Assembly (NCBI RefSeq): GCF_001463705.1
Contig: NZ_BBWH01000002.1
Coordinates: 1-64,000 of the forward strand
DNA length: 64,000 bases
Reading direction: 5' to 3'
From: Aureimonas sp. AU12
Lineage (GTDB): Bacteria; Pseudomonadota; Alphaproteobacteria; Rhizobiales; Rhizobiaceae
Shown: positions 14,515 through 26,645 of the stretch, one piece after another
Layout of the letters: each line of letters begins with the position of its first letter
Numbering within the stretch: position 1 is the first letter of the stretch
Position numbers and translations under genes: made by a program
The notes under the pieces: generated by a model
Database searches by the model: none
The model's input: the letters and a program-made list of their open reading frames with translations, nothing else
What the model was told of the DNA's origin: nothing

Positions 14515-15300
14515 TCAAGCGCTCGTGGGGCTACGCCGATGCCGGTTCATGAGAGCCACCAGGCCGGCGAGCAGCATGGTGCCAACGATGAGCAGGAAGG
14601 CCGCTGCCGCGATGGCCGGCGAGATGTTCTCGCGGATCGAGGAGAACATCTGTCGTGCGAGCGTCCGCTGATTTGGCCCGGCGACGAAGAGCGTCAGCAC
14701 GACTTCGTCAAGCGAAGTGGCGAAGGCGAAGACCGCCCCGGTGAGAACACCGGGAAACGCCAGCGGCAAGGTGACGCGGCGAAACACCGTGGCGGGCGAT
14801 GCGCCGAGGCTCGCCGCCGCCCGCTCCACGCGGCGGTCGATCCCCTGCAGCGCCGTCGACACGCTGACGACGACGAAAGGCACGCAGAGCACGCTATGGG
14901 CGAGAATGACGCCGCTGTAGCTGCTGGCGAGGCCGAGCCGCACGAGCGCGATCTGCAGGCCGACGCCGAGCACGACGGCCGGCACCACCATCGGCAGGAG
15001 GAACACGGTTCGCACCACGTTGCCGAAGGGCACAAGACCGCTGCGCAGCCCGAGCGCCGCCGTGGTGCCGAGAACGACGGACAGGATGGTGGCGGACAGG
15101 CCGATGATCAGACTGTTGACGATCGAAAGACGCCAGACATCGGCGTTGACGAGTTCCGCAAACCAGCGGGTCGAGACCGAGGGGATGGGATAGTTGAGGA
15201 AGATGCCGGACGTGAAGGCCAGCGGCAGGATCGCGACGAGCGGCAACAGCAAGAATACCACCGCAAGACCGCTGAACAGCACTTGGAAACTGCGCAGCAT
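14515..15300 (-). CDS. ABC transporter permease, PotC-like
   Basis: This 261-residue inner-membrane permease has six hydrophobic segments and the EAA loop (EAAASLGASP-like: ERAAASLGASPATVFRRV near residue 160). It belongs to the spermidine/putrescine/opine importer class and is the last gene of a leftward binding-protein/ATPase/PotB/PotC operon. It starts three bases after the preceding permease gene ends. The substrate is not evident; polyamine-like or cationic compounds are typical. Confidence 0.92.
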   Translation of the reverse strand: MLRSFQVLFSGLAVVFLLLPLVAILPLAFTSGIFLNYPIPSVSTRWFAELVNADVWRLSIVNSLIIGLSATILSVVLGTTAALGLRSGLVPFGNVVRTVFLLPMVVPAVVLGVGLQIALVRLGLASSYSGVILAHSVLCVPFVVVSVSTALQGIDRRVERAAASLGASPATVFRRVTLPLAFPGVLTGAVFAFATSLDEVVLTLFVAGPNQRTLARQMFSSIRENISPAIAAAAFLLIVGTMLLAGLVALMNRHRRSPTSA

Positions 15301-15303
15301 GGC

Positions 15304-16482
15304 TCAGGCTCCCAAGGGCGCGGCGGAGCGCGATAGACGGCCGTAGACGAGATAGAGCACCGTCGTCACCACGAGCAGGATGAGACCGAGGGCCCCGGCC
15401 ATGCCCCAGTTCGCCGTCTGCAGCGAGTAGAAGGCGATGATCGACGAGATCATCTGGTCGTTCGGTCCGCCGACGAGCGCGGGCGTGATGTAGTAGCCGA
15501 TGGCCACCATGAAGACGAGGAGCGAGCCCGACAGGATGCCCGGCATCGCCAGCGGGAGGAGGATGCGCAGGAAGGCGCGCATCGGACTGGCGCCCATCGA
15601 GGCGGCGGCGGGCATCAGGGTCTTCGGGATCGAGTTGATGACGCTGTAGATCGGCAGCACCATGAACGGCAGCAGCACGTGCGTCATCGCGATCACGACG
15701 CCCGTCCGGTTGAAGATCAACGGCACCGGCCGGGTGGTGAGGCCGAGGTCGATCAGCGTCCGGTTGATGAGGCCCTGGTCCTGCAGGAGGATGAACCAGG
15801 CGGCGGTGCGCACGAGAAGCGAAGTCCAGAGCGGCAGCAGCACCGACATCAGGAGCACGTTGCGCTTCCAGCCTGAGGTCGCCGCGAGCAGCATCGCATA
15901 GGGCAGGCCGATGGCGAGACAGCAGACGGTGATGATGCCGGAAATCAGGAAGGTTCGCCCGATGATCAGCCGGTTGGCGGAACTTTCGGGCGGCAGCCGC
16001 GTCACCGCGCCGCCCGCATCGCGCGCTAGATCGACGGCGGCCAGAAGATTGCGGTCGGTGTAGGCCGATGCGCCGCTGGCGATGGCCGTCCAGTAGCGCG
16101 TGTCGGCCCAGCGCGGGTCGAGGGTCGCAAGATCCGGCGGTGTGCCGCCGGCGGCCTCGCGGGCGGCGGTCGCGGTCTTCGGTATCAGCGTGCGGAACCC
16201 CGACACCTCGCTGTTGAGGCGCCGCACCGCAGGGCCGAGCGCCGTCGATTCGGCATCGGCAAGGTCTGCGACGAGCGCGCCCTGGATCTCGGCGTCGGGC
16301 ACACCCGTCCCGTCCCAGTCTCCGATCACCGCGACCGTGCGCGGCAGTGCGGAGACGATCGCCCCGTCGCGCACCGACACGGAGATGACCGTCCAGAGCG
16401 GCCAGAAGAAGAACACGGCGAGAAACAGGAAGAGCGGCGCGATGAGCGCCGCACTGCGCAGCGAGGCCCCGGAGCGGCTCAT
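15304..16482 (-). CDS. ABC transporter permease, PotB-like, with a large periplasmic insertion
   Basis: This is the second permease of the importer. At 392 residues it is about 100 longer than ordinary PotB. After the first membrane segment (about 10-32) there is a hydrophilic stretch of about 120 residues, rich in Ala, Asp and Thr, before the remaining five membrane segments and the EAA loop (AAASMGASPMRAFLRI near 270). The insertion should lie in the periplasm and may contact the binding protein. Its ATG overlaps the stop of the ATPase gene (ATGA). Confidence 0.92.
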   Translation of the reverse strand: MSRSGASLRSAALIAPLFLFLAVFFFWPLWTVISVSVRDGAIVSALPRTVAVIGDWDGTGVPDAEIQGALVADLADAESTALGPAVRRLNSEVSGFRTLIPKTATAAREAAGGTPPDLATLDPRWADTRYWTAIASGASAYTDRNLLAAVDLARDAGGAVTRLPPESSANRLIIGRTFLISGIITVCCLAIGLPYAMLLAATSGWKRNVLLMSVLLPLWTSLLVRTAAWFILLQDQGLINRTLIDLGLTTRPVPLIFNRTGVVIAMTHVLLPFMVLPIYSVINSIPKTLMPAAASMGASPMRAFLRILLPLAMPGILSGSLLVFMVAIGYYITPALVGGPNDQMISSIIAFYSLQTANWGMAGALGLILLVVTTVLYLVYGRLSRSAAPLGA

Positions 16483-17540
16483 GCGGCGAAGACCGTGCAG
16501 TCGGCGGGATCGAACCGCAAATGCGTGCGGCTGCCGACTGCCGGGGGCGCGTTGCGCCGCTCGCAGCGCACGACGAAGCGCAAGGCGCCGCGCGAGAGGT
16601 GCAGGCGAAGATGGTCGCCCTGATAGACGACATCGTCGACGCCGGCTTCGAAGCTGTTGTCGCCGGCCTCGCTCGCCAGCATCAGGCGCTCCGGGCGGAT
16701 CGAGACAACGACGTTACCGGCCACATCGCCCGACGCCGGGCGCGGCGTGCGGATGCGCGCGCCCTCGCCGAAATCGACCACGAGTTCGCGGTGGTCCTGA
16801 GACGCGACCTCGGCCTTGAGCAGATTGGTCTCGCCGATGAACTGCGCGACGAAAGCGTTGGCAGGCTTGTCGTAGACATCGGAGGCCGAGCCGATCTGCG
16901 AGATACGACCCTTGTCGAAGATGGCGACGCGATCCGACATGGTCAGCGCCTCGCCCTGGTCGTGCGTCACGAACACGACGGTGAGACCGAGACGCCGGTG
17001 CAACTCGCGGATCTCGAGCTGCATCTCCTCGCGCAGCTGCTTGTCGAGCGCGCCGAGCGGCTCGTCCATCAGCACGACCTTTGGCTCGAAGACGAGTGCG
17101 CGCGTCAGCGCCACGCGCTGCTGCTGGCCGCCCGAAAGCTGGTCGGGCCGTCGTTCGCCGAGATGGCCGAGACGCACGCGATCGAGCGCCTTTGCAACCC
17201 GCTCGCGGATCTCGGACTTCGCCATGCCGCGCATCTGCAGGGGAAACGCGACGTTCTCGGCGATCGTCATGTGCGGGAACAGGGCGTAATTCTGGAACAC
17301 GACGCCGATGCCGCGCTTGTGCGGCGGCAGGTCCTGGATCCGCTCGCCATCCATCCAGATAGCGCCGGACGAGGCGTCCTCGAAGCCCGCCAGCATCATC
17401 AGGATCGTGGTCTTGCCGGACCCCGAAGGACCGAGCAGCGACACGAACTCCCCCTTCTTCACCTCCAGTTCGAGATTTTCGACGACGAGCGTCTGCCCGA
17501 AGGATTTCGAGACGTCGTGAAAGTGGATGAACGCGTTCAT
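16479..17540 (-). CDS. ABC transporter ATP-binding protein, PotA-like
   Basis: This 353-residue ATPase powers the importer. Walker A GPSGSGKTT is near residue 36, the signature LSGGQQQRVA near 134, Walker B VVLMDEPLGALD near 154, and the switch histidine follows in FVTHDQGEA. A C-terminal TOBE domain (about 270-350) is typical of the CUT1/polyamine class. The ATG at 17540 behind GGGGG was chosen over a TTG nine codons upstream. It sits between the binding-protein gene and two permeases. Confidence 0.95.
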   Translation of the reverse strand: MNAFIHFHDVSKSFGQTLVVENLELEVKKGEFVSLLGPSGSGKTTILMMLAGFEDASSGAIWMDGERIQDLPPHKRGIGVVFQNYALFPHMTIAENVAFPLQMRGMAKSEIRERVAKALDRVRLGHLGERRPDQLSGGQQQRVALTRALVFEPKVVLMDEPLGALDKQLREEMQLEIRELHRRLGLTVVFVTHDQGEALTMSDRVAIFDKGRISQIGSASDVYDKPANAFVAQFIGETNLLKAEVASQDHRELVVDFGEGARIRTPRPASGDVAGNVVVSIRPERLMLASEAGDNSFEAGVDDVVYQGDHLRLHLSRGALRFVVRCERRNAPPAVGSRTHLRFDPADCTVFAA

Positions 17541-17620
17541 CGGCCCCCGGAAGGTTGGCGTCGGCAAAGGAAGATCGGATCGGCCGGACAGTCACGCCGG
17601 CCGATCTCGGAAGCTCTGCG

Positions 17621-18670
17621 TTACTGCGCGACCCAGGCGTTGAAGCGGGTCGTCAGGGCCTCGATGTTGTCGACCCAGAAGTCGGTGTCGAGCGGGATCG
17701 CCACATCGAGATTGGCAGGCGCGGTCGGCAGCTGTGCCGCGACTTCCGGCTTCAGCATGGCGCCGGCTTCCTTGTCCGGCAGGCCGTAGGCGATGTAGTC
17801 GGGCAGCTTGGACTGGTTGGCCGGTAGGCTGGCGAACTGCACGAAGTCGAAGGCCGCGTCCTTATTGGGCGAGCCCTTCAGCACCACCCAGCTATCGACA
17901 GCGTAGATGCTCCCGGGCCAGACGATCTGAAAGTTCTTGCCCTCGGACTTGTTGATGCCCGCAAGGCGGCCGTTATAGGCCGACGTCATCACCACCTCGC
18001 CCGAGGCGAGAAGCTGGATCGGCTGGGCGCCGGCTTCCCACCAGACGAGATCGGACTTGATCGTGTCGAGTTTCTTGAAGGCGCGGTCGACGCCCTCGGG
18101 CGTGGCAAGCACTTCATAGACCGTCTTCGGATCGACACCGTCGGCGATGAGGGCGAATTCGAGCGCGTATTTCGGCCCCTTGCGCAAGGCGCGCTTGCCT
18201 GGAAACTTCGTGGTGTCGAAGAAGTCGGCCCAGCTGGTCGGCGCCGCCTTCAGCTTGTCGGCGTCATAGCCGATGCCCGTGGTCCAGACGATCGCGCCGA
18301 CGCCGCAATCGCTGACGGCGGACGGAATGAACTTGTCCTCGCCGCCGAGCTTCGACCAGTCGACCTTCTCGTAGATGCCATCGGCGCAACCGAGCGCGAG
18401 TTCCTCGGCCTCGACCTGCACGACATCCCAATTGGCCGCGCCCGCCTGCATCTTGGCGGCCAGCACGCCATAGCCGCCGTCCCACGATTCTTCGAGAAGC
18501 GGCTTGCCCGCTTTCTCGGCAAAGGGCTTGAAGTAGATTTCCCGCTGCGCGTCCTGGTAGTTGCCGCCCCAGGAGACGACCGTCAGGTCGCGGGCCGAGG
18601 CCGGAGCCGAGGCCATCAGGGCCGCCAGAAGGGCGCCGCCCATCGTCATTCGCAGTGCATTTGCAGCCAT
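17621..18670 (-). CDS. extracellular solute-binding protein, PotD/PotF-like
   Basis: This 349-residue periplasmic protein begins with a signal peptide (basic MAANALRMTM, hydrophobic core, cleavage near ASA-RDL) and then TVVSWGGNYQDA, a hallmark of the spermidine/putrescine-binding family. It delivers substrate to the PotABC-like proteins encoded downstream. A good GGAGACGAG ribosome-binding site precedes the ATG at 18670. Acidic ligand-cage residues cannot be assigned from sequence alone, so the substrate is open. The XRE-cupin regulator gene lies 137 bp upstream on the same strand. Confidence 0.93.
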   Translation of the reverse strand: MAANALRMTMGGALLAALMASAPASARDLTVVSWGGNYQDAQREIYFKPFAEKAGKPLLEESWDGGYGVLAAKMQAGAANWDVVQVEAEELALGCADGIYEKVDWSKLGGEDKFIPSAVSDCGVGAIVWTTGIGYDADKLKAAPTSWADFFDTTKFPGKRALRKGPKYALEFALIADGVDPKTVYEVLATPEGVDRAFKKLDTIKSDLVWWEAGAQPIQLLASGEVVMTSAYNGRLAGINKSEGKNFQIVWPGSIYAVDSWVVLKGSPNKDAAFDFVQFASLPANQSKLPDYIAYGLPDKEAGAMLKPEVAAQLPTAPANLDVAIPLDTDFWVDNIEALTTRFNAWVAQ

Positions 18671-18807
18671 GATCTCGTCTCCGGATTTGAACGCCTCCAA
18701 AGACAAGCATGAAAGTGAGATGCCTCCAAATGCCGCGTGTGCCTTGCTGAGGAAACTTTCCAACGGCAACGCCTGGCAACGGGCAGCCTGCTCGCTGGAG
18801 GGCAGCT

Positions 18808-19356
18808 TCAGTAGGTCGGCGGCGTGATCGCGCTGATCAGTTCGGCCTGTTCGGTGCCGGCATTGCGAAATCGATGGGGCGTCTCGCTATCGAAATAGTA
18901 GGCGTCCCCGGCGCTCAGGAGACGCGTCTGCGCCCCGACCGTAACCTCGACCGCTCCCTTCGTCACCACGCCCGCCTCCTGCGCCTTGTGGGAGAACGCC
19001 TCGCCGGTGTCGGCACCGGGACTGTAGCTTTCGCACAGGAGCAGCAGATGCCGGTTCGGATGATTGATGCCGACCATCCGATAGGAAATGCCGTCGGCGC
19101 GGCCAATCTCCGCGAGGTCTTCGCGTGCGTAGAACGGCGAATGCGGGAGCTTGTCGCCGAGCTCGGAGAAGAACCCGGTCAGCGTCGAACCCATGGCTTC
19201 GAGGATCGCGCTCAGGGTATCGATCGACGGGCTCATGCGGTCCCGCTCCAGCAGCGAGATGGTGGAATGCGAGATGCCGGACCGCACCGCAAGCTGCCGG
19301 GTGGTCAGCTGTCGCCGTCGGCGCAGCTCGCGGATTTCAGCGCCGATCGCCGGCAT
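18808..19356 (-). CDS. XRE family transcriptional regulator with cupin domain (PuuR-like)
   Basis: This 182-residue regulator has an N-terminal helix-turn-helix (LTTRQLAVRSGISHSTISLL, about 15-34) and a C-terminal cupin fold (about 105-175, GDAYYFDSETPHRF). PuuR of E. coli, of nearly the same length, represses putrescine genes, so a small-molecule-sensing repressor is likely. The ATG at 19356 follows a strong GAGGGAGGG site and is preferred to an upstream in-frame start. It lies between the ABC importer genes and a divergent HisD paralogue and probably controls both. Confidence 0.92.
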   Translation of the reverse strand: MPAIGAEIRELRRRRQLTTRQLAVRSGISHSTISLLERDRMSPSIDTLSAILEAMGSTLTGFFSELGDKLPHSPFYAREDLAEIGRADGISYRMVGINHPNRHLLLLCESYSPGADTGEAFSHKAQEAGVVTKGAVEVTVGAQTRLLSAGDAYYFDSETPHRFRNAGTEQAELISAITPPTY

Positions 19357-19432
19357 GGGCAGCCCTCCCTCATCTTCAACGAACTTCGCGAAGCTGCACA
19401 CGCGACGTGCACTGCATTTTCGCCTCGCTGAG

Positions 19433-19473
19433 TATAGTGAGCGGCGCTTCGATTGCCATTGCGCAAGCGCCGC
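19433..19473 (+). promoter_or_regulatory. promoter-operator candidate for the HisD paralogue
   Basis: TATAGT at 19433-19438 matches the -10 consensus at five of six positions, although no good -35 is seen. Immediately downstream, 19441-19449 and 19465-19473 form a perfect 9-bp inverted repeat (GCGGCGCTT/AAGCGCCGC) with a 15-base centre, which would cover the expected transcription start. That position suits an operator for the divergently encoded XRE-cupin protein. Both parts are inferences from sequence. Confidence 0.35.
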
Positions 19474-19520
19474 CTCTCCAGCAGCCTTGGGAGGACCGGC
19501 TCCGATGAAAGTCCCCTTCC

Positions 19521-20816
19521 ATGTCCCAGCAGACTGATTCCATTCGCTCGCGCATCAAGCAGTTGAAGGCGCCGCGGAGCGACACGGCAACGGGCACGGC
19601 CGTGGAAGCGACCGTCAAGGAGATCCTCGCGGCCGTGCGCGACGAAGGAGACGCCGCGGTGCGGCGCTATTCGCTGGCCTTCGATAAGATCGAGCCGGAC
19701 GCCTTCGAGATCACCGCGGCCGAAAGGGCGGAAGCGGTCGCCGCTCTCGATCCGCAGACGCGTGCGGACACCGAGTTCGCGATCGCCAACGTGCGTGCCT
19801 TCGCCAAGGCGCAGCTTGCGACCATCCTGCCGCTCGAAATCGAGCTGCGGCCCGGCTTGCATCTCGGCCACCGCGTGATCCCGATCCGGCGCGTCGGCGC
19901 CTATGTGCCGGGCGGCCGCTATCCGCTGCTCTCGGCGCCGGTGATGACGATCGTGCCGGCCAAGGTCGCAGGCTGCGCCGAGGTCGTCGCGTGCCTGCCG
20001 CCGAACGCTCATCCGGCGATGATCGCCGGCTGCCATCTTTCCGGGGCCGATCGGATCTTCCGGGTCGGCGGCGCGCAGGCCATCGCCGCCATGGCCTTCG
20101 GCACGGCCACGATCCCCGCCGTCGACAAGATCGTCGGGCCGGGCAATGCCTATGTGAACGAGGCCAAGCGGCAGGTCTTCGGCCCCGTCGGCATCGACCA
20201 GCTCGCCGGCCCCAGCGAGATCTACGTGGTGGCGGACGAGACCGGCCATCCCGAGATCATCGCCACCGACCTCCTGGCGCAGGCCGAGCACGACATCCAC
20301 ACGCGTGTCGGCCTGATCACGACGCACCGCCCGCTGGCGGAAGCGGTGATCGCCGAGGTCGCGCGCCAGCTCGAAACGCTCTCGACGGCAGCGGTCGCCG
20401 GCATCGCCTGGGAGCGGCAGGGCGAGGTCACGGTGGTGGGGAGCGAGGCGGACATGATCGCCTATTCCGACCTCATCGCCGCCGAGCACCTGCAGGTGCA
20501 CACCCGCGCCCCCCGCGCTTTCGCGGAACGGCTGTCGAATTACGGCTCCCTCTTCATCGGACCGATGGCGAGCGTCGTCTATTCCGACAAGTGCTGCGGC
20601 ACCAACCACACGCTGCCGACGATGGGAGCGGGTCGCTACACCGGCGGGCTCTGGGTCGGCTCCTACGTCAAGATCGCGACGCATCAGTGGCTCGACGCCG
20701 CCGGCGTCGCCGCCGTCGGCCCCGCGGCCGAGCGCCAGAGCCGCAGCGAAGGTCTTGAGGGCCATCGCCGGGCCGCGGCACTGCGCATGGAACAGCCGGG
20801 TCTCTTCGGCAGCTGA
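19521..20816 (+). CDS. hisD: histidinol dehydrogenase family protein (HisD paralogue)
   Basis: The 431-residue product is a full-length member of the HisD family of NAD-dependent alcohol/aldehyde dehydrogenases. The zinc and catalytic residues of HisD are kept: Gln254, His257, Glu322, His323, Asp356 and His415. The CCGTNHTLPT segment differs from the AGPNHVLPT usual in biosynthetic HisD and is like the HpsN (sulfopropanediol dehydrogenase) branch. It has no his genes nearby but sits with an XRE-cupin regulator and a polyamine-type importer, so a catabolic role on another alcohol is more likely than histidine synthesis. The gene ends four bases from the convergent phospholyase gene. Confidence 0.85.
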   Translation: MSQQTDSIRSRIKQLKAPRSDTATGTAVEATVKEILAAVRDEGDAAVRRYSLAFDKIEPDAFEITAAERAEAVAALDPQTRADTEFAIANVRAFAKAQLATILPLEIELRPGLHLGHRVIPIRRVGAYVPGGRYPLLSAPVMTIVPAKVAGCAEVVACLPPNAHPAMIAGCHLSGADRIFRVGGAQAIAAMAFGTATIPAVDKIVGPGNAYVNEAKRQVFGPVGIDQLAGPSEIYVVADETGHPEIIATDLLAQAEHDIHTRVGLITTHRPLAEAVIAEVARQLETLSTAAVAGIAWERQGEVTVVGSEADMIAYSDLIAAEHLQVHTRAPRAFAERLSNYGSLFIGPMASVVYSDKCCGTNHTLPTMGAGRYTGGLWVGSYVKIATHQWLDAAGVAAVGPAAERQSRSEGLEGHRRAAALRMEQPGLFGS

Positions 20817-20820
20817 TGCG

Positions 20821-22107
20821 TCAGGCGGGGAGTTTCGCCAGCACCTCGTCGAGTCGTTCGAGGAAGTGGTCGGCATCCGTGGTGCTGAAGGGCAGCGGCG
20901 GTCGGATCTTCAGCCCCTGCCCTTGCGCTCCGCAGAGGCCGACGAGAACGCCCTCGCGGCGCAGGCCGTTGACGACGAGCGAGGCGAGCTTCGGCGCCGC
21001 CGTTCGCGATGGTCGATCGGATACCATCTCGATCCCGGCATAGAGCCCGGCGCCGCGAACGTCGCCGACGCTCTCATGCAGGCTTTTGAGACCCTCAAGG
21101 CCGGCGAGAAGATGCGCGCCCACCCGCCGCGCATTGCCGAGAAGCTCCTCGTCTCGTACGACATCGAGCACCGCGAGGCCGACCGCGGCGGACACGGGAT
21201 TGCCGCCGAACGTGTTGAAGTAGCGCGACCGGCGGCCGAACTCCTCCAGCAGTGCGGGCCGCGCGATCATCGCCGCGATCGGATGCCCGTCGCCCATCGG
21301 CTTGCCGAGCGTCACGAGGTCGGGCACCAGCGCATGGCGCTCGAAGCCCCACATATGCGAGCCCATACGGGCCAGCCCCGCCTGAACCTCGTCGGCGATG
21401 AAGAGGCCTCCGGCCCCGCGCACCGCCTGAACCGCGCCCGTCACGAAACCCGCCGGGTCTACGAACAGCCCGTCGCTGGCGAACACCGTGTCGAAGAGCA
21501 GCGCCGCCGGCTTGATCCCGGCCTCGGCCAGGCTGGCGATCGCCGCCTCGACATCGGCCTGGAACCGCGCGCCGATCTCGGCGGCCGGAACGCGATAGCT
21601 GTCCGGTGCCGGCACCGTGCGCACATGCCGGCCGACGCCGAGGCCGAGCGAAGGCGACATCTCCGCCAGCGCTGCCGTGACGCCATGATAGGCGTTGGCG
21701 GTGACGATGAAGCCTTCGTTGCCCGTCACCGTGCGCGCGACGCGCACCGCGAGATCGTTGGCCTCGCTGCCGGTGCAGGTGAACATGACCTGCGACAGCT
21801 CGGCGGGAAACAGCGCCAGCAGCCGTTCGGCATAGTCGAGCACCGTCTCGTGCAGATAGCGCGTGTGGGTGTTGAGGATCGCCGCCTGCCGGGCCAGCGC
21901 TTCCACCACGCGCGGATGGCAATGACCGACCGAGGGCACGTTGTTGTAGACGTCGAGAATGCGCCGCCCGTTGGCCTCCACCAGCCAGACGCCCTCGCCG
22001 CGAACCGGGTGCAGCGGCTCCTCGTAGAGGACACGGTAGGCGGGACCGAGAAGACGGGCGCGGCGCGCCAGAAGATCGGCGGCATCGGGCAGAGGCGCTA
22101 TGGTCAT
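20821..22107 (-). CDS. class III aminotransferase-fold phospholyase (PHYKPL/ETNPPL-like)
   Basis: This 428-residue PLP enzyme has the class III aminotransferase fold with PLP lysine Lys269 in GKPMGDGHP, TGSEANDLA near 115, and VGHCHPRVV near 50. These segments closely resemble the animal AGXT2L proteins, which are not aminotransferases but lyases acting on 5-phosphohydroxylysine (giving 2-aminoadipate semialdehyde, ammonia and phosphate) or phosphoethanolamine. It is preceded by a kinase gene with an ATGA overlap, so kinase plus phospholyase is the natural reading. The start at 22107 is fixed by that overlap. An ordinary omega-aminotransferase activity is the main alternative. Confidence 0.88.
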   Translation of the reverse strand: MTIAPLPDAADLLARRARLLGPAYRVLYEEPLHPVRGEGVWLVEANGRRILDVYNNVPSVGHCHPRVVEALARQAAILNTHTRYLHETVLDYAERLLALFPAELSQVMFTCTGSEANDLAVRVARTVTGNEGFIVTANAYHGVTAALAEMSPSLGLGVGRHVRTVPAPDSYRVPAAEIGARFQADVEAAIASLAEAGIKPAALLFDTVFASDGLFVDPAGFVTGAVQAVRGAGGLFIADEVQAGLARMGSHMWGFERHALVPDLVTLGKPMGDGHPIAAMIARPALLEEFGRRSRYFNTFGGNPVSAAVGLAVLDVVRDEELLGNARRVGAHLLAGLEGLKSLHESVGDVRGAGLYAGIEMVSDRPSRTAAPKLASLVVNGLRREGVLVGLCGAQGQGLKIRPPLPFSTTDADHFLERLDEVLAKLPA

Positions 22108-23249
22108 CGTGAACCCTCGGATCGCCACCGTGCCAGAACCGCGTCGCGCGCGGCTGCCGGCTTCATGGTCATGAACTTGTCGATCAAAGCCCAGGCGCCG
22201 CTCTGGCTGCGCAGGATGTAGTCGGCATTCTCGGGAAACAGCTGCACCCGCCACTGCGGAATCAGCACCCGCAGGCAAAGCCGCGCCATCGCGAGGTCGG
22301 TCAGATGGAACACCTCGGCTTCCGCGAGCGGCGTCACCGTCTCGAACCCTGCCATCACCTCGCAGAGATCGGCAATCGGATCTCCCGTGGCTTCCAACTG
22401 GTAGCTGGCCGCGACCGCGAGATCGCAGACCATTGGGGCGCGCACCATGTCGCCGAAATCCACGATAGCCGCGATCGCGTCGGGGTCGGCGGGATCGACG
22501 AAGACGTTGCTCCCCGAGAGGTCGTTGTGGATGATCTGCGGCCGCAGGTCACGCACCGCCGGTGCGACCTCACGGGCGAAACGCTCGGTGAACTCACCGA
22601 CGAAATCGCGCCGCGCGGGATCTACGATGCCCACCGCGAAGGGCGCGAGGTCGCCGAGCCGCATCAGGTCCCACAGAAGAACCCTGTCGGCTTGCGGGTC
22701 GCGGTAGGTTTCGAGCGCCTGTCCGAGCCGGGCCACCGAAGCGCCGAGCGCATAGCGCCGTCGCGCTGTGGGCACATGGTGAAGAGCCGGTTCGCCGGGA
22801 ACGAAGGAGACGACGACGCCGTGCTCGCGCTGCCCGTCGATGCCGTCGAACGTGAATTCGTGTGCCCCGCTGCACGTCGCGATCAGCGACGGTACCGCGA
22901 AGGGCAGCGCGGTGCGCTCCAGGTGCGTGAGCACACCGGACTGGAAGGCCCGCGTCGGCGCGTCGTCCGTGCGGTTGTAGATTTTCAGGACGGTCCTGAT
23001 TCCCTCGGCGTCCTCGACCAGAAAGTTTCGGTCGCGCTCGCCGGACAAGGGGTGGACGCTCGCCTCGATCCCGTAGTGCTGCGCCATCAGTTCGGCGGCG
23101 ACGGCGGCATCGACGTCCGGCGGAGCGGTGGAGAGAAGCCGAGCGGCTTGCCGCAATTCCTCAGTCGCAAAGTCCGGCGCCGCGGCGATCACGCGGCACA
23201 TGCCCGTGTCGCCCTCGCGCTCGCCGCCGACTTCCGACAGCGGGTTCAT
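22104..23249 (-). CDS. hydroxylysine-kinase-like phosphotransferase (APH family)
   Basis: This 381-residue protein has the aminoglycoside-phosphotransferase/choline-kinase fold, with the catalytic HNDLSGSN motif and the metal-binding IVDFGDM motif. Downstream segments (AGFETVTPL, FPENADYIL) resemble animal hydroxylysine kinase (HYKK/AGPHD1). It would phosphorylate the hydroxyl of 5-hydroxylysine or a similar amino alcohol with ATP or GTP. It overlaps the CoA-transferase gene before it and the phospholyase gene after it by four bases each, so the four genes form one operon. An antibiotic-resistance role is unlikely in this context. Confidence 0.85.
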   Translation of the reverse strand: MNPLSEVGGEREGDTGMCRVIAAAPDFATEELRQAARLLSTAPPDVDAAVAAELMAQHYGIEASVHPLSGERDRNFLVEDAEGIRTVLKIYNRTDDAPTRAFQSGVLTHLERTALPFAVPSLIATCSGAHEFTFDGIDGQREHGVVVSFVPGEPALHHVPTARRRYALGASVARLGQALETYRDPQADRVLLWDLMRLGDLAPFAVGIVDPARRDFVGEFTERFAREVAPAVRDLRPQIIHNDLSGSNVFVDPADPDAIAAIVDFGDMVRAPMVCDLAVAASYQLEATGDPIADLCEVMAGFETVTPLAEAEVFHLTDLAMARLCLRVLIPQWRVQLFPENADYILRSQSGAWALIDKFMTMKPAAARDAVLARWRSEGSR

Positions 23250-24430
23250 TGCGCCTGCGCCCGGCTCGGCCAGTCCGGCGAGCAGTTCAGCCGAGCTTCG
23301 ATGTCCGCGCCATGCTCGCCCAGACGCGGCGATGGTGCATCGAAATCGAGCGCCGCGTCCGACAGGGTGATCGGCGTCCGCACGCCGGGGATTCCGCCCG
23401 CTTCGATCCGCATCTCCCGGTGCAGGAACTGGGGCTCGGCGAAGACATCGGCGACCGAGTTGATCGGCCCGCCCGGCACGCCCGCCGTCTCCAGCGCGCT
23501 CAGGAGATCGTCGCGAAACCAGATCGACGTCTTCTCCTGCAGCCGTGCGGTCAGCGCCTCGCGGTTGGCGACACGCGCGGCATTCGTCGCGAAAGCCGGA
23601 GCGGCAGCAAGGTCGGCGAGGCCGAGGATCGACGTCAGCCGGGCAAACTGGCCGTCGTTGCCGCAGGCGACGATGACGTGCCCATCGGCCACGGGCAGCG
23701 TCTGATAGGGGGCGATGTTGGGGTGGGCATTGCCGAGCCGCCGCGGCGACGTGCCAGAGACCAGATAGTTCATCGCCTGATTGGCGAGAACGCCGGTCAT
23801 GCAGTCGAACAGTGCCATGTCGACATGCTGGCCGCGGCCGGTGGTCTCGCGCTGCCAGAGCGCGGCCTGGATCGCCACGACACCGTAGAGCCCGGTGAAG
23901 ATGTCGGCGAAGGCGACGCCCACCTTCTGCGGCTCGCCATCGGGATCGCCGGTCAGGTCCATGATCCCGCTCATGCCCTGGATCATGAAATCGTAGCCCG
24001 CCCGATGCGCGGACGGCCCGTCCTGCCCGAAGCCTGTGACGGAGCAGTAGACGAGACGCGGATTGATCGCCTTCAGGCTCTCGTAGTCGAGCCCATAGCG
24101 CTTCAAGCCGCCGACCTTGAAGTTCTCGACGAGAACGTCGGCGGTCGCGGCGAGCCTCAGCACGAGGTCGCGCCCGTCCTGGCTCGCAAAATCCGCGGTG
24201 ATCGATCGCTTACCACGGTTGCAAGCGTGAAAGTACGCCGCCGATCGCTCGTCGCCCCGCTCCACGAAGGGCGGTCCCCATGTGCGGGTGTCGTCCCCTG
24301 CCGGGCTCTCGACCTTGATCACGTCGGCGCCGAGATCGGCCAGCGTCTGGCCCATCCAGGGGCCGGCGAGAATGCGGGCGAGTTCGACGACCTTGAGACC
24401 GCGCAGCGGCGGCGGGCCCTTCGCGTCCAT
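23246..24430 (-). CDS. CaiB/BaiF family CoA transferase, probably succinyl-CoA:glutarate type
   Basis: This 394-residue class III CoA transferase has the family opening GLKVVELARILAGPW, the VKVE-type segment VIKVESPAGDDTR, and the catalytic aspartate in VDMALFD (about 195-201). The gene starts two bases after gcdH ends. In Pseudomonas (GcdG) and in animals (SUGCT) such enzymes make glutaryl-CoA from glutarate, the substrate of GcdH, so the same role is inferred here. Other dicarboxylates are possible. Confidence 0.9.
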   Translation of the reverse strand: MDAKGPPPLRGLKVVELARILAGPWMGQTLADLGADVIKVESPAGDDTRTWGPPFVERGDERSAAYFHACNRGKRSITADFASQDGRDLVLRLAATADVLVENFKVGGLKRYGLDYESLKAINPRLVYCSVTGFGQDGPSAHRAGYDFMIQGMSGIMDLTGDPDGEPQKVGVAFADIFTGLYGVVAIQAALWQRETTGRGQHVDMALFDCMTGVLANQAMNYLVSGTSPRRLGNAHPNIAPYQTLPVADGHVIVACGNDGQFARLTSILGLADLAAAPAFATNAARVANREALTARLQEKTSIWFRDDLLSALETAGVPGGPINSVADVFAEPQFLHREMRIEAGGIPGVRTPITLSDAALDFDAPSPRLGEHGADIEARLNCSPDWPSRAQAQ

Positions 24431-24432
24431 GG

Positions 24433-25620
24433 TCAGAAGAACGCCTGCAGGCCGGTCTGCGCCCGGCCGAGGATCAAGGCGTGGACGTCGTGCGTGCCCT
24501 CGTAGGTGTTCACCGTCTCGAGGTTCTGCGCGTGGCGCATGACGTGATACTCGATCTGGATGCCGTTACCGCCGTGCATGTCGCGCGCCGCCCGCGCCAC
24601 GTCGAGCGCCTTCCCGCAGTTGTTGCGCTTGACGATCGAGATCATCTCCGGCGCCATCCGTCCCTCGTCCATCAGGCGGCCGACCCGCAGGCTGGCTTGA
24701 AGGCCCAGTGCGATCTCTGTCTGCATGTCGGCGAGCTTCTTCTGAAACAGCTGCGTCTGCGCCAGCGGACGGCCGAACTGCTTGCGATCGAGCCCGTACT
24801 GCCGGGCGCGGTGCCAGCAGTCCTCGGCAGCCCCCAGCACGCCCCAGGAAATGCCGTAGCGTGCGCGATTGAGGCAGCCGAACGGCCCTTTAAGGCCGGA
24901 TACGCTTGGCAGCAGCGCGTCCTCGCCGACCTCGACATCCTCCATGACGATCTCGCCGGTGATCGACGCCCGCAACGAGAGCTTGCCGCCGATCTTCGGC
25001 GCCGAAAGTCCCTTCATGCCCTTCTCGAGCACGAAGCCGCGGATCTCGCCGCCATGCGCGGCGGACTTCGCCCAGACGACGAAGACGTCGGCGATCGGCG
25101 CGTTGGAAATCCACGTCTTGGCGCCGTTCAGGCGATAGCCGCCCTCGATCTTCTCGGCGCGTGTCGTCATGCCGCCGGGATCGGATCCGGCATCGGGCTC
25201 GGTCAGGCCGAAGCAGCCGACCAGTTCGCCCGAGACGAGGCCCGGCAGATACTTTTGGCGCTGCGCGTCCGAGCCGTAGGTAAAAATCGGATAGATCACG
25301 AGTGAGGACTGCACCGACATCATCGAGCGGTAGCCGGAATCGATCCGCTCGATCTCGCGCGCCACGAGGCCGTAGGCGACATAGCTCGCGCCCGCCGCGC
25401 CATACTCTTCCGGGAGCGTCAGTCCGAGCAGGCCCGCCTGCCCCATGAGCCGGAACAGGTCGGGATCGGTGCGCTCGTCGAGATAGGCATCGTTGACGCG
25501 CGGCAGCAGTTCGGTCGCGGCGAACGCCGCAGCAGAGTCGCGGATCATCCGCTCGTCTTCGCTCAGCTGGTCTTCGAGAAGGAACGGGTCGCTCCAGTCG
25601 AAGGCGGTTCGCTCGGCCAT
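24433..25620 (-). CDS. gcdH: glutaryl-CoA dehydrogenase
   Basis: This 395-residue flavoprotein oxidises and decarboxylates glutaryl-CoA to crotonyl-CoA in lysine, tryptophan and glutarate breakdown. It has the GCDH-specific [12 protein letters not shown] segment, [20 protein letters not shown], and the catalytic base Glu374 in [17 protein letters not shown], all very close to animal GCDH. The ATG at 25620 follows GAGGAG; upstream in-frame codons are not conserved-looking. It is the first gene of the four-gene operon and is divergent from a LysR regulator. Confidence 0.97.
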
Positions 25621-25715
25621 GGGTCGCTCCTCGTCGCGGGTCTCGTCCGTTGTGCCGCTCACGGCAGATGTCGGCAAGCAACGTTTACGCTGCGATCCAT
25701 TCCCTTTAGGACTGG

Positions 25716-26645
25716 ATGATGCCGCTGACGCCGCGAAAGCTCCTGCCCTCCTCCAGCGCCCTCGCGGCCTTCGACGCGGTGGCGCGCCACCGGAGTTTCT
25801 CGCTCGCGGCAGGCGAACTCTCCCTGACCCAAAGTGCCGTCAGCCGGCAGGTCGCGGCGTTGGAAGACCAGCTCGGCGTGGCATTGTTCGAGCGCACCAG
25901 CCGCTCCGTCGCGTTGACGGACGCCGGCCGCGCCTACGCGGGCGCTGTCGAGCCGGCGCTCGGTCGAATCCGGCAGGCGACGCTGCAACTCCTGACGCAA
26001 CGGCCCGCCAACGTCCTGAACCTCGCGATCCCACCGACCTTCGGCACGCGCTGGCTGATGCCCCGCATTCCCGGTTTCGTCGCCGCCCATCCGACGATCA
26101 CGCTCAACTTCGCGACACGCATCGGTCAGTTCGATTTCGCCAGGGACGGTCTCGATGCCGCGATCCATATCGGACGGCCGGAATGGCCGGGCGCGGAGTG
26201 CCGCTTCCTCATGGGCGAGACGGTCGCCCCGGTCTGCAGCCCCGATTTCCTCGCGCGTCACCGGATATCGAAGGCCGCTGACCTCGTCGGTCTGCCGCTG
26301 TTCCACATGGCGTCGCGGCCCGGCGCCTGGGGGCAATGGTTCGAAGGCGCCGGTCTCGCGGCGGCTGCGGACGGCGGCATGCGCTTCGAGCAGTTCGCGC
26401 TGGTCGCGCAGGCCTGTATCGGCGGCCTCGGCGTCGCTCTGATGCCGCTCTTCCTCATTCGCGCCGAACTCGACAGCGGGCAGCTCGTTCTTGCCGACCC
26501 CCGGGAGGTCGACAGCCCCAGCGCCTACTATCTCGTGGCACCTTCGTTCGCGCAGGCCGGCCCCGCGCTCACCGCGTTCAGCGACTGGATCAGCCGCGAA
26601 GTCGAGGTCGACCGAGCTGGAACCGAAGCCCCAACGCAAGCGTGA
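25716..26645 (+). CDS. LysR family transcriptional regulator (GcvA/GcdR-like)
   Basis: The 309-residue product has an N-terminal winged helix-turn-helix ([20 protein letters not shown], about 27-46) and a LysR substrate-binding domain. It is divergent from gcdH across a 95-bp gap that contains the short dyad TGCCG/CGGCA at 25653-25666, a possible operator. GcdR, a LysR protein, controls gcdH-gcdG in Pseudomonas, so activation of the adjacent operon by glutarate or a related compound is inferred. ATGATG gives two equivalent starts. Confidence 0.92.

What the first reader, a model, noticed from the sequence alone, without database searches (positions are those of the whole stretch)
20821..25620. 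Four-gene operon that looks like a bacterial hydroxylysine breakdown pathway
gcdH, a CaiB-type CoA transferase, a kinase resembling animal hydroxylysine kinase (HNDLSGSN, DFGDM, AGFETVTPL, FPENADYIL) and a class III aminotransferase-fold protein resembling the phospholyases PHYKPL/ETNPPL (GKPMGDGHP) are packed head to tail with a 2-bp gap and two ATGA overlaps. In animals the kinase and lyase turn 5-hydroxylysine into 2-aminoadipate semialdehyde, and SUGCT plus GCDH finish the route through glutaryl-CoA. Finding all four in one operon with a divergent LysR gene is strong guilt by association. The steps from aminoadipate semialdehyde to glutarate or glutaryl-CoA are not in the window.
Basis: partly seen in the sequence, partly recalled or inferred. 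Interest (0 to 1): 0.8.

Follow-up and report, generated by a model that had tools for sequence, protein, structure and literature searches.

The report
Amino-alcohol breakdown operon ending in glutarate
A soil-type bacterium carries a gene block that probably takes up a hydroxylated amino acid, tags it with phosphate, splits off ammonia and feeds the rest into glutarate breakdown; it uses the same two-step trick that animals use on hydroxylysine, but the substrate here is probably not hydroxylysine itself.

Summary
In detail: lyase, kinase, glutarate CoA-transferase (gcoT/caiB) and gcdH lie head to tail at 20821-25620 with a divergent LysR gene. They are one end of a larger block (14515-26645) with an ABC transporter, an XRE-cupin regulator and a HisD-like dehydrogenase. 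In 9 of 21 genomes of the genus (one is Aureimonas sp. AU20) kinase, gcoT and gcdH are neighbours. The window's kinase-lyase pair is of another lineage than the sisters' pair at the same place (one clade rejected, p-AU 4e-6 and 1.7e-5), so such a pair was put there at least twice: good evidence of a functional link.

The hydroxylysine reading is only partly supported. Genes for the animal-type product (amaB, hglS) sit elsewhere in the genome and in none of 72 kinase-lyase stretches read. The transporter's binding protein resembles GABA-binding proteins and keeps their Arg/Asp anchors. I favour an omega-amino, beta-hydroxy acid such as 5-amino-4-hydroxyvalerate, turned into glutarate semialdehyde, glutarate, glutaryl-CoA and crotonyl-CoA. 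No substrate is shown, and the gcoT-gcdH link was seen in this genus only.

The parts
20821..22107 (-). PLP-dependent class III aminotransferase-fold phospholyase
   Evidence: PF00202 231 bits; best PDB 5g4i phospholyase 383 bits and 6tor ethanolamine-phosphate phospho-lyase 347 bits, next other class III protein 185 bits
22104..23249 (-). APH-fold small-molecule kinase, partner of the lyase
   Evidence: PF01636 95.6 bits; best NCBIfam PRK06148/PRK06149 (kinase-lyase fusions), below cut-off; beside the lyase in 29 of 29 other loci; no PDB sequence match at E<=0.001
23246..24430 (-). glutarate CoA-transferase (gcoT/caiB type)
   Evidence: NF052585 586 bits, under the cut-off of 750; PDB 4ed9 633 bits; only match in the genome at E<=1e-60
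24433..25620 (-). glutaryl-CoA dehydrogenase gcdH
   Evidence: PDB 4w9u 782 bits (labelled acyl-CoA dehydrogenase), 3eom 609 bits and 1sir 552 bits (glutaryl-CoA dehydrogenases)
25716..26645 (+). divergent LysR regulator, in the position of GcdR
   Evidence: PF03466/PF00126; best NCBIfam GcvA-type, 276 bits under the cut-off of 288; 39-41% to the LysR at the same place in 6 sister genomes, which are 73-94% to each other
19521..20816 (+). HisD-family zinc/NAD dehydrogenase, convergent with the lyase (4-bp gap)
   Evidence: PF00815 449 bits; TIGR00069 hisD 439 bits, over the cut-off of 244; best PDB is DHPS dehydrogenase 304 bits, histidinol dehydrogenase 276 bits; a second HisD-family gene is on contig C23 at 42%
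18808..19356 (-). XRE-cupin regulator (PuuR-like), divergent from the hisD-like gene
   Evidence: PF07883 + PF01381; PRK09943 134 bits, under the cut-off of 211
17621..18673 (-). ABC substrate-binding protein of the GABA-binding type
   Evidence: PDB 4eq7/4euo 201 bits, 9d57 190 bits, 6dgv GABA sensor 183 bits; Arg and Asp anchors kept
16479..17540 (-). ABC ATPase, PotA type
   Evidence: TIGR01187 383 bits, over the cut-off of 355.6
15304..16482 (-). ABC permease 1
   Evidence: ORF; 75-79% to five sister loci
14515..15300 (-). ABC permease 2
   Evidence: ORF in the transporter run; named from its sequence and place, not scanned

Best explanation
A catabolic block for an omega-amino acid with a hydroxyl next to the amino carbon (R-CH(OH)-CH2-NH2, R ending in a carboxylate), most likely 5-amino-4-hydroxyvalerate. 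Steps: (1) the GABA-type ABC transporter imports it [inferred from the binding protein]; (2) the kinase phosphorylates the hydroxyl [inferred from family]; (3) the PLP phospholyase eliminates phosphate and ammonia and leaves an aldehyde, here glutarate semialdehyde [reaction type from family, substrate inferred]; (4) an aldehyde dehydrogenase outside the window, for instance the SSADH-type enzyme on contig C4, makes glutarate [inferred]; (5) GcoT makes glutaryl-CoA and (6) GcdH makes crotonyl-CoA [enzyme identity well supported by sequence]; the LysR protein would switch on gcdH when glutarate accumulates, as GcdR does in P. putida [by analogy; this LysR is a divergent one]. The HisD-like enzyme, together with an omega-transaminase found after the same transporter genes in some sister genomes, may run a second route on the same substrate (R-CH(OH)-CHO to R-CH(OH)-COO-), the chemistry of DHPS dehydrogenase [speculative].
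For: Kinase, gcoT and gcdH are neighbours in 9 of 21 genus genomes. The HisD/XRE/SBP/ATPase block lies beside them in 6 of the 9; in the other three HisD-XRE is 6 kb off at the edge of the stretch read (G372), the whole block is 11 kb off (G457), or a partial hisD ends the lyase contig (G458). Swap in place: identity window to genus is kinase 32-35% (7 sister genomes among themselves 63-94%) and lyase 56-59% (78-97%), while gcdH, gcoT, HisD, XRE and transporter are 70-89%; LysR also differs, 39-41% against 73-94%. One clade is rejected for kinase (p-AU 4e-6) and lyase (p-AU 1.7e-5), and both trees put the window pair with the same two relatives (L031, L041). GABA-type binding protein: 201 bits to 4eq7/4euo; the Arg205 equivalent is kept in 26 of 26 SBPs aligned and Asp228 in 25 of 26; pocket residues from PMC12999171, passages. 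An SSADH/ALDH-type gene (30% or more) is in 12 of 63 standalone loci, amaB and hglS in 0 of 63 and 0 of 9 fused. Rahnella has gabT (825 bits, cut-off 725) and gabD (714, cut-off 646) beside transporter-SDR-kinase-lyase. PRK06105-type omega-transaminase in 12 of 63. P. putida gcdR-gcdH-gcoT has the same layout and answers to glutarate (PMC6667623, passages).
Against: No aldehyde dehydrogenase and no omega-transaminase in the block in this genome. The gcoT-gcdH link was seen in one genus only: in the 297 genomes drawn from the order, the window alone has a gcoT match at E<=1e-120 within 20 kb of a kinase (compared by eye). gcoT-type genes (65% or more) are also in 9 genus genomes without the linked pair, so the pair could merely have landed there. 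The SBP differs from the GABA binder at four of eight pocket positions (Thr to Tyr, Phe to Ile, Phe to Trp, Trp to Tyr), so the ligand is probably not plain GABA; the Arg is kept in non-GABA relatives too and agropine-type 6hly has Glu for the Asp, so only the Asp speaks, weakly. Of 13 of 297 order genomes with a close HisD, only 4 (G000, G121, G150, G198) have the kinase within 20 kb. HisD-XRE-transporter stands without the pair in 4 genus loci (L121, L122, L123, L127) and HisD-XRE in four plasmid records. Most of the 63 loci show neither this transporter (41 of 63) nor an ALDH (51 of 63) in the stretch read, and no random neighbourhoods were counted as a control.
Confidence: 0.42

Rival explanations
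1. One reading: 5-hydroxylysine kinase plus 5-phosphohydroxylysine phospholyase making 2-aminoadipate semialdehyde, which then reaches glutaryl-CoA.
Against: amaB and hglS lie on contig C36, not here, and in none of 72 kinase-lyase stretches read; the hglS route bypasses GcdH; ETNPPL falls with fused proteins rather than with the window lyase (moderate support); a CoA-transferase for free glutarate is not needed on that route; the binding protein is GABA-like.
Confidence: 0.2
2. The pair acts on another beta-hydroxy amine (4-amino-3-hydroxybutyrate, 2-hydroxyputrescine, ethanolamine, 1-amino-2-propanol, or a reduced amino ketone), and gcoT-gcdH is a neighbour that handles glutarate from elsewhere.
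For: Bacterial relatives sit in varied contexts: SDR (55% or more) in 10 of 63, GntR in 25 of 63, gabT-gabD in Rahnella; nearest solved relatives are a phospholyase (5g4i) and ethanolamine-phosphate phospho-lyase (6tor); a P. aeruginosa GABA binder, PA4985, also takes ethylenediamine weakly (PMC11113362, passages).
Against: Two unlike kinase-lyase pairs sit against gcoT-gcdH in the same genus, which chance explains poorly.
Confidence: 0.3
3. The block is two unrelated pathways side by side on a metabolic island: a HisD-XRE-ABC module and a glutarate module, with a mobile kinase-lyase pair between them.
For: HisD-XRE-transporter stands alone in 4 genus loci, HisD-XRE on rhizobial plasmids; gcdR-gcdH-gcoT stands alone in P. 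putida and in two genus loci (L126, L128); core-type genes on both sides.
Against: The same type of transporter accompanies kinase-lyase without HisD in 11 of the 22 SBP-bearing loci, and with HisD in four lineages (genus, L035, L047/L050/L051, L092).
Confidence: 0.08

Closest known systems
Animal hydroxylysine kinase (HYKK) with PHYKPL, and ETNPPL (Veiga-da-Cunha 2012: seen only as a reference in PMC8154272; content recalled)
   Same: Kinase and class III aminotransferase-fold ammonia-phospholyase acting in sequence.
   Different: ETNPPL falls with fused bacterial proteins, not with the window lyase; HYKK and PHYKPL could not be compared; operon partners point to free glutarate, not to 2-oxoadipate.
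Bacterial kinase-lyase fusions PRK06148 / PRK06149
   Same: Same two domains, best NCBIfam match for both proteins.
   Different: Here two separate genes; below both cut-offs; fused lyases group with ETNPPL; at the cut-offs none of 9 fused loci has the transporter, HisD or gcoT (one, L065, has a CaiB-family gene at 48%).
P. putida gcdR-gcdH-gcoT
   Same: Divergent LysR, gcdH, then glutarate CoA-transferase (PMC6667623, passages).
   Different: Kinase and lyase added downstream in the same run of genes.
Phospholyase A1RDF1-type (PDB 5g4i; the name A1RDF1 is recalled)
   Same: Nearest solved relative of the lyase, 383 bits.
   Different: Only distantly placed (long branch); its pathway was not studied here.
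GABA-binding protein Atu4243 (4eq7/4euo) and iGABASnFR; P. aeruginosa AgtB and PA4985
   Same: Family, Arg and Asp anchors, Trp and Tyr of the pocket; the two P. aeruginosa proteins are of the same Pfam family by PMC11113362 and were not aligned.
   Different: Four of eight pocket residues changed.

Membership tests
animal-type hydroxylysine breakdown (HYKK-PHYKPL) | kinase of the hydroxylysine kinase subfamily | not testable with these tools
   HYKK sequence not at hand; no PDB match for the kinase
animal-type hydroxylysine breakdown (HYKK-PHYKPL) | lyase in the clade of animal ammonia-phospholyases | tested here: inconclusive
   ETNPPL groups with bacterial fused proteins (89/79, not starred); window + L031 + L041 + ETNPPL as one clade rejected, p-AU 6.5e-6. 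PHYKPL itself was not at hand
animal-type hydroxylysine breakdown (HYKK-PHYKPL) | genes for aminoadipate semialdehyde oxidation linked to the pair | tested here: not met
   amaB and hglS in 0 of 63 standalone and 0 of 9 fused stretches; present elsewhere in the genome
animal-type hydroxylysine breakdown (HYKK-PHYKPL) | activity on 5-hydroxylysine and its phosphate | not testable with these tools
   needs assay
class III fold ammonia-phospholyases | closer to characterised phospholyases than to transaminases | tested here: met
   383 and 347 bits to 5g4i and 6tor against 185 bits for the next; tree with three transaminases as outgroup places it with both (94/93)
gcdR-gcdH-gcoT glutarate cluster | gcdH beside a glutarate CoA-transferase gene, LysR divergent | tested here: met
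   the transferase is under its NCBIfam cut-off
gcdR-gcdH-gcoT glutarate cluster | LysR binding site of the P. putida type between lysR and gcdH | tested here: inconclusive
   no perfect 5-5-5 inverted repeat in the window's intergenic stretch
GABA / 5-aminovalerate binding proteins | Arg and Asp that hold the ligand's two ends | tested here: met
   both kept in the window
GABA / 5-aminovalerate binding proteins | full GABA pocket | tested here: not met
   4 of 8 positions differ
histidinol dehydrogenase (for the HisD-like gene) | over the curated TIGR00069 cut-off | tested here: met
   439 bits against 244; the model is broad, and the best solved relative is DHPS dehydrogenase
PRK06148 kinase-lyase fusion | score over the curated cut-off, one polypeptide | tested here: not met
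   493 and 230 bits against 1128; two genes

The most novel reading that the evidence does not exclude
A bacterial route for 5-amino-4-hydroxyvalerate (and, in relatives such as Rahnella, 4-amino-3-hydroxybutyrate) that I found described nowhere in the searches (listings only): phosphorylation and beta-elimination replace transamination and give the dicarboxylate semialdehyde directly, possibly with a HisD-like dehydrogenase and omega-transaminase as a second branch on the same imported substrate. Such hydroxy-amino acids could come from hydroxylysine, hydroxyproline or 5-aminolevulinate (recalled chemistry).
Probability: 0.35. Interest if true: 0.68.

Novelty: new variant of a known kind. Interest (0 to 1): 0.5.

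Why it matters
Kinase-phospholyase pairs are widespread in this order (61 of 297 genomes carry a kinase match at E<=0.001, the weakest of which look like other APH kinases) and occur on many plasmids (310 records), yet the ten plasmid records read with them name them only phosphotransferase and aminotransferase. This locus suggests the downstream end of one such pair (glutarate), names a testable substrate class, and warns against transferring the animal hydroxylysine label to bacterial genomes. The repeated installation of unlike pairs at one place is a natural test of the link.

Tried and rejected
Close-relative scan of GTDB contigs with the kinase gave no confirmed locus; the genome search was used instead. 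Literature: of 10 searches of the open-access library, nine were on this pathway and one on the GABA-binding protein; the listings showed no bacterial hydroxylysine kinase-phospholyase pathway, but I opened only passages of four papers, and subscription papers, including Veiga-da-Cunha 2012, are not held, so this is weak evidence of absence. One search was too broad to be useful. Considered and rejected: HisD as the histidine-biosynthesis gene of this genome (it does pass the hisD model, but the genome has another HisD-family gene, and this one scores best to DHPS dehydrogenase; not a firm exclusion); gcdH as a generic acyl-CoA dehydrogenase. Lysine 2-monooxygenase (davB/davA), which would link hydroxylysine to 5-amino-4-hydroxyvalerate, was not searched for. 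An inverted repeat of the GcdR kind was looked for and not found. Structure prediction was not run: the relatives were in loci whose use that tool does not list, and a single-sequence model would add little. The 63 standalone loci are not a random sample: the best hits of an order search, hand-picked family and genus loci and ten plasmid loci (one of which, L038, was dropped as the same place as L102); stretches were about 3 to 20 kb (the window 32 kb), so absences are of the stretch read. The first kinase tree fell back to a quick method; the reported test is from a careful 32-row tree with rows that I chose. The clades tested were named after the identities had been seen.
Full report
1. What is there. 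The gcdH product matches solved acyl-CoA/glutaryl-CoA dehydrogenases with 782, 609 and 552 bits (4w9u, 3eom, 1sir). The CaiB product fits best the NCBIfam model for succinate--glutarate CoA-transferase, 586 bits, under its cut-off of 750. The lyase matches two solved phospholyases (383 and 347 bits) about twice as well as the next protein (185 bits). The kinase is of the APH family and has no sequence match in the PDB. Kinase and lyase both find as best NCBIfam models the fusion proteins PRK06148 and PRK06149, far under the cut-offs.

2. The block is larger than the finding. On the far side of the lyase, with a 4-bp gap, lies a convergent hisD-like gene (19521-20816), then an XRE-cupin regulator and a four-gene ABC transporter (14515-18673). 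To the left are core-type genes (pyrB-, pyrC-, topA- and rnr-like by recall from their translations), to the right an Mla-type ABC system (by recall); so the block looks like an island in conserved surroundings.

3. Kinase and lyase belong together. In 297 genomes drawn from the order, 61 have a kinase match at E<=0.001, the weakest probably other APH kinases; in 151 of the family, 40. Of the 30 loci returned for the best places, one is the window and the other 29 all carry the lyase beside the kinase. Some relatives are fused (9 of the 72 loci read at length).

4. The glutarate link. In the order sample 133 of 297 genomes have a CaiB match at E<=1e-120, but only the window has one within 20 kb of a kinase (compared by eye). 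In the own genus, 21 genomes, 11 have the lyase at E<=1e-90, and 9 of these (G000, G372, G445, G450, G453, G454, G455, G457, G458) have kinase, gcoT and gcdH as neighbours (in G458 the lyase is on another short contig). One genome, G454, carries a 488888-base contig equal in length to the Aureimonas sp. AU20 plasmid NZ_CP006368 with the same genes, so the genus includes that strain. gcoT-type genes (65% or more) also occur in 9 genus genomes without the linked pair.

5. A swap in place. In seven of the eight sister loci the kinase points the other way from the lyase (in the eighth they are on different contigs); in the window they overlap on one strand. Median identity window to genus against genus to genus (7 sister genomes, fewer for some genes): gcdH 82/90, gcoT 72/87, hisD-like 81/87, XRE 84/88, SBP 88/91, but kinase 35/71, lyase 58/84, LysR 40/75. 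Holding window and genus kinases in one clade costs 70 log units (p-AU 4e-6, 32-row tree); for lyases 121 units (p-AU 1.7e-5, 34-row tree). Both trees place the window pair with L031 (Haematobacter plasmid) and L041 (G050). So two unlike pairs were set between the same neighbours. The groups were named after seeing identities, so the p-values are somewhat generous. The nearest sister by gcdH (G452, 92%) has lysR, gcdH and a gcoT whose match to the window stops at residue 333, without the pair in the stretch read.

6. What the neighbours say about the substrate. Among 63 standalone loci (not a random sample, no random control), with the identity cut-offs: block-type binding protein in 22, HisD-like in 12, XRE in 12, a PRK06105-type omega-transaminase in 12, SDR in 10, GntR in 25, an SSADH/ALDH-type gene in 12, gcoT in 9; amaB and hglS in none; none of these partners at those cut-offs in the 9 fused loci, though weaker relatives occur there, such as a CaiB-family gene at 48% in L065. 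Not all ALDHs are SSADHs: of the four scanned, Rahnella's passes the SSADH cut-off (714 against 646), L096's fits SSADH models best but under cut-off, and those of L062 and L098 fit betaine-aldehyde models best, under cut-off. The binding protein's best solved relatives are 4eq7/4euo (the Agrobacterium GABA-binding protein Atu4243 by recall; the PDB label says polyamine) and two GABA sensors. Of the eight GABA-contact residues named for iGABASnFR2 (PMC12999171, passages), the window keeps Trp9, Arg205, Asp228 and Tyr264 and changes the other four. P. aeruginosa relatives of the same Pfam family bind GABA and 5-aminovalerate (PMC11113362, passages). This points to an omega-amino acid.

7. HisD. 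A close HisD (E<=1e-150) is in 13 of 297 order genomes; 4 of these (the window, G121, G150, G198) have the kinase within 20 kb. In the genus, HisD-XRE-transporter stands beside the pair in 6 of the 9 linked genomes, farther off or cut by a contig end in 3, and without the pair in 4 loci read. On plasmids of Rhizobium, Sinorhizobium, Mesorhizobium and Nitratireductor HisD-XRE stands without kinase-lyase. The protein passes the broad hisD model (439 bits, cut-off 244) but scores best to DHPS dehydrogenase.

8. What the rest of the genome says. The genome has a separate hglS - FAD oxidase - amaB - LysR run on contig C36 (amaB 815 bits, cut-off 730; hglS family 536 bits; oxidase and LysR named from sequence by recall). 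It offers aminoadipate semialdehyde a way to 2-hydroxyglutarate that does not use GcdH (recalled pathway). An SSADH-type enzyme is on C4 (679 bits, cut-off 646). Two transaminases at 67 and 62% to the genus omega-transaminase are elsewhere.

9. Reading. Three facts are best joined by a C5 substrate: an operon that needs free glutarate, a transporter that looks made for omega-amino acids, and a phospholyase that turns R-CH(OPO3)-CH2-NH2 into R-CH2-CHO. 5-Amino-4-hydroxyvalerate gives glutarate semialdehyde. Rahnella, with gabT, gabD, SBP, two permeases, an SDR, kinase and lyase in one run, would be the C4 case. The HisD-like enzyme keeps the motifs that I recall as the catalytic and zinc residues of histidinol dehydrogenase; DHPS dehydrogenase oxidises R-CH(OH)-CH2OH through the aldehyde to the acid (recalled); with an omega-transaminase the HisD-like enzyme could oxidise the same substrate to a 2-hydroxy acid. 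This last point is speculation.

10. Limits. No enzyme activity is shown. HYKK and PHYKPL were not compared, and the placing of ETNPPL with the fused proteins has moderate support only (89/79). The glutarate link rests on one genus. The pocket of the binding protein is altered. HisD-XRE also stands alone. Neighbour counts have no random control.

Noticed in passing
L134 9-5343 (contig C36 of the window's genome): hglS, an FAD oxidase that looks like pipecolate oxidase, L-piperidine-6-carboxylate dehydrogenase and a LysR gene in one run: a lysine/pipecolate route to 2-hydroxyglutarate.
   Followed up: partly
L120 8037-10569 (G452): Nearest sister by gcdH carries lysR, gcdH and gcoT; DNA homology to the window (87.5%) ends inside gcoT and inside lysR, and no kinase-lyase lies in the stretch.
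   Followed up: partly
L065, L066, L068, L069, L071, L075, L076, L078, L079: Fused kinase-lyase proteins of about 1000 residues with a middle stretch not identified here; their lyase part is the bacterial group nearest to animal ETNPPL in the trees.
   Followed up: partly
L062 and L098: Two different kinase-lyase pairs within one 20-kb stretch, from distant clades.
   Followed up: no
L041 6873-10650: Kinase, lyase and omega-transaminase in one run in the genome that holds the window lyase's closest relative, with a GMC-type oxidoreductase (by recall) divergent from it.
   Followed up: no
L036 4910-10354 (Chelatococcus plasmid): Kinase-lyase beside a histone-deacetylase-like protein and a Zn-dependent hydrolase, upstream of hydroxyectoine genes; a different source of the amine is possible there.
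   Followed up: no
L033 13251-14429 (Azospirillum ramasamyi plasmid): A gcdH relative (69%) about 3 kb from the lyase, outside the genus, without gcoT in the stretch read.
   Followed up: no
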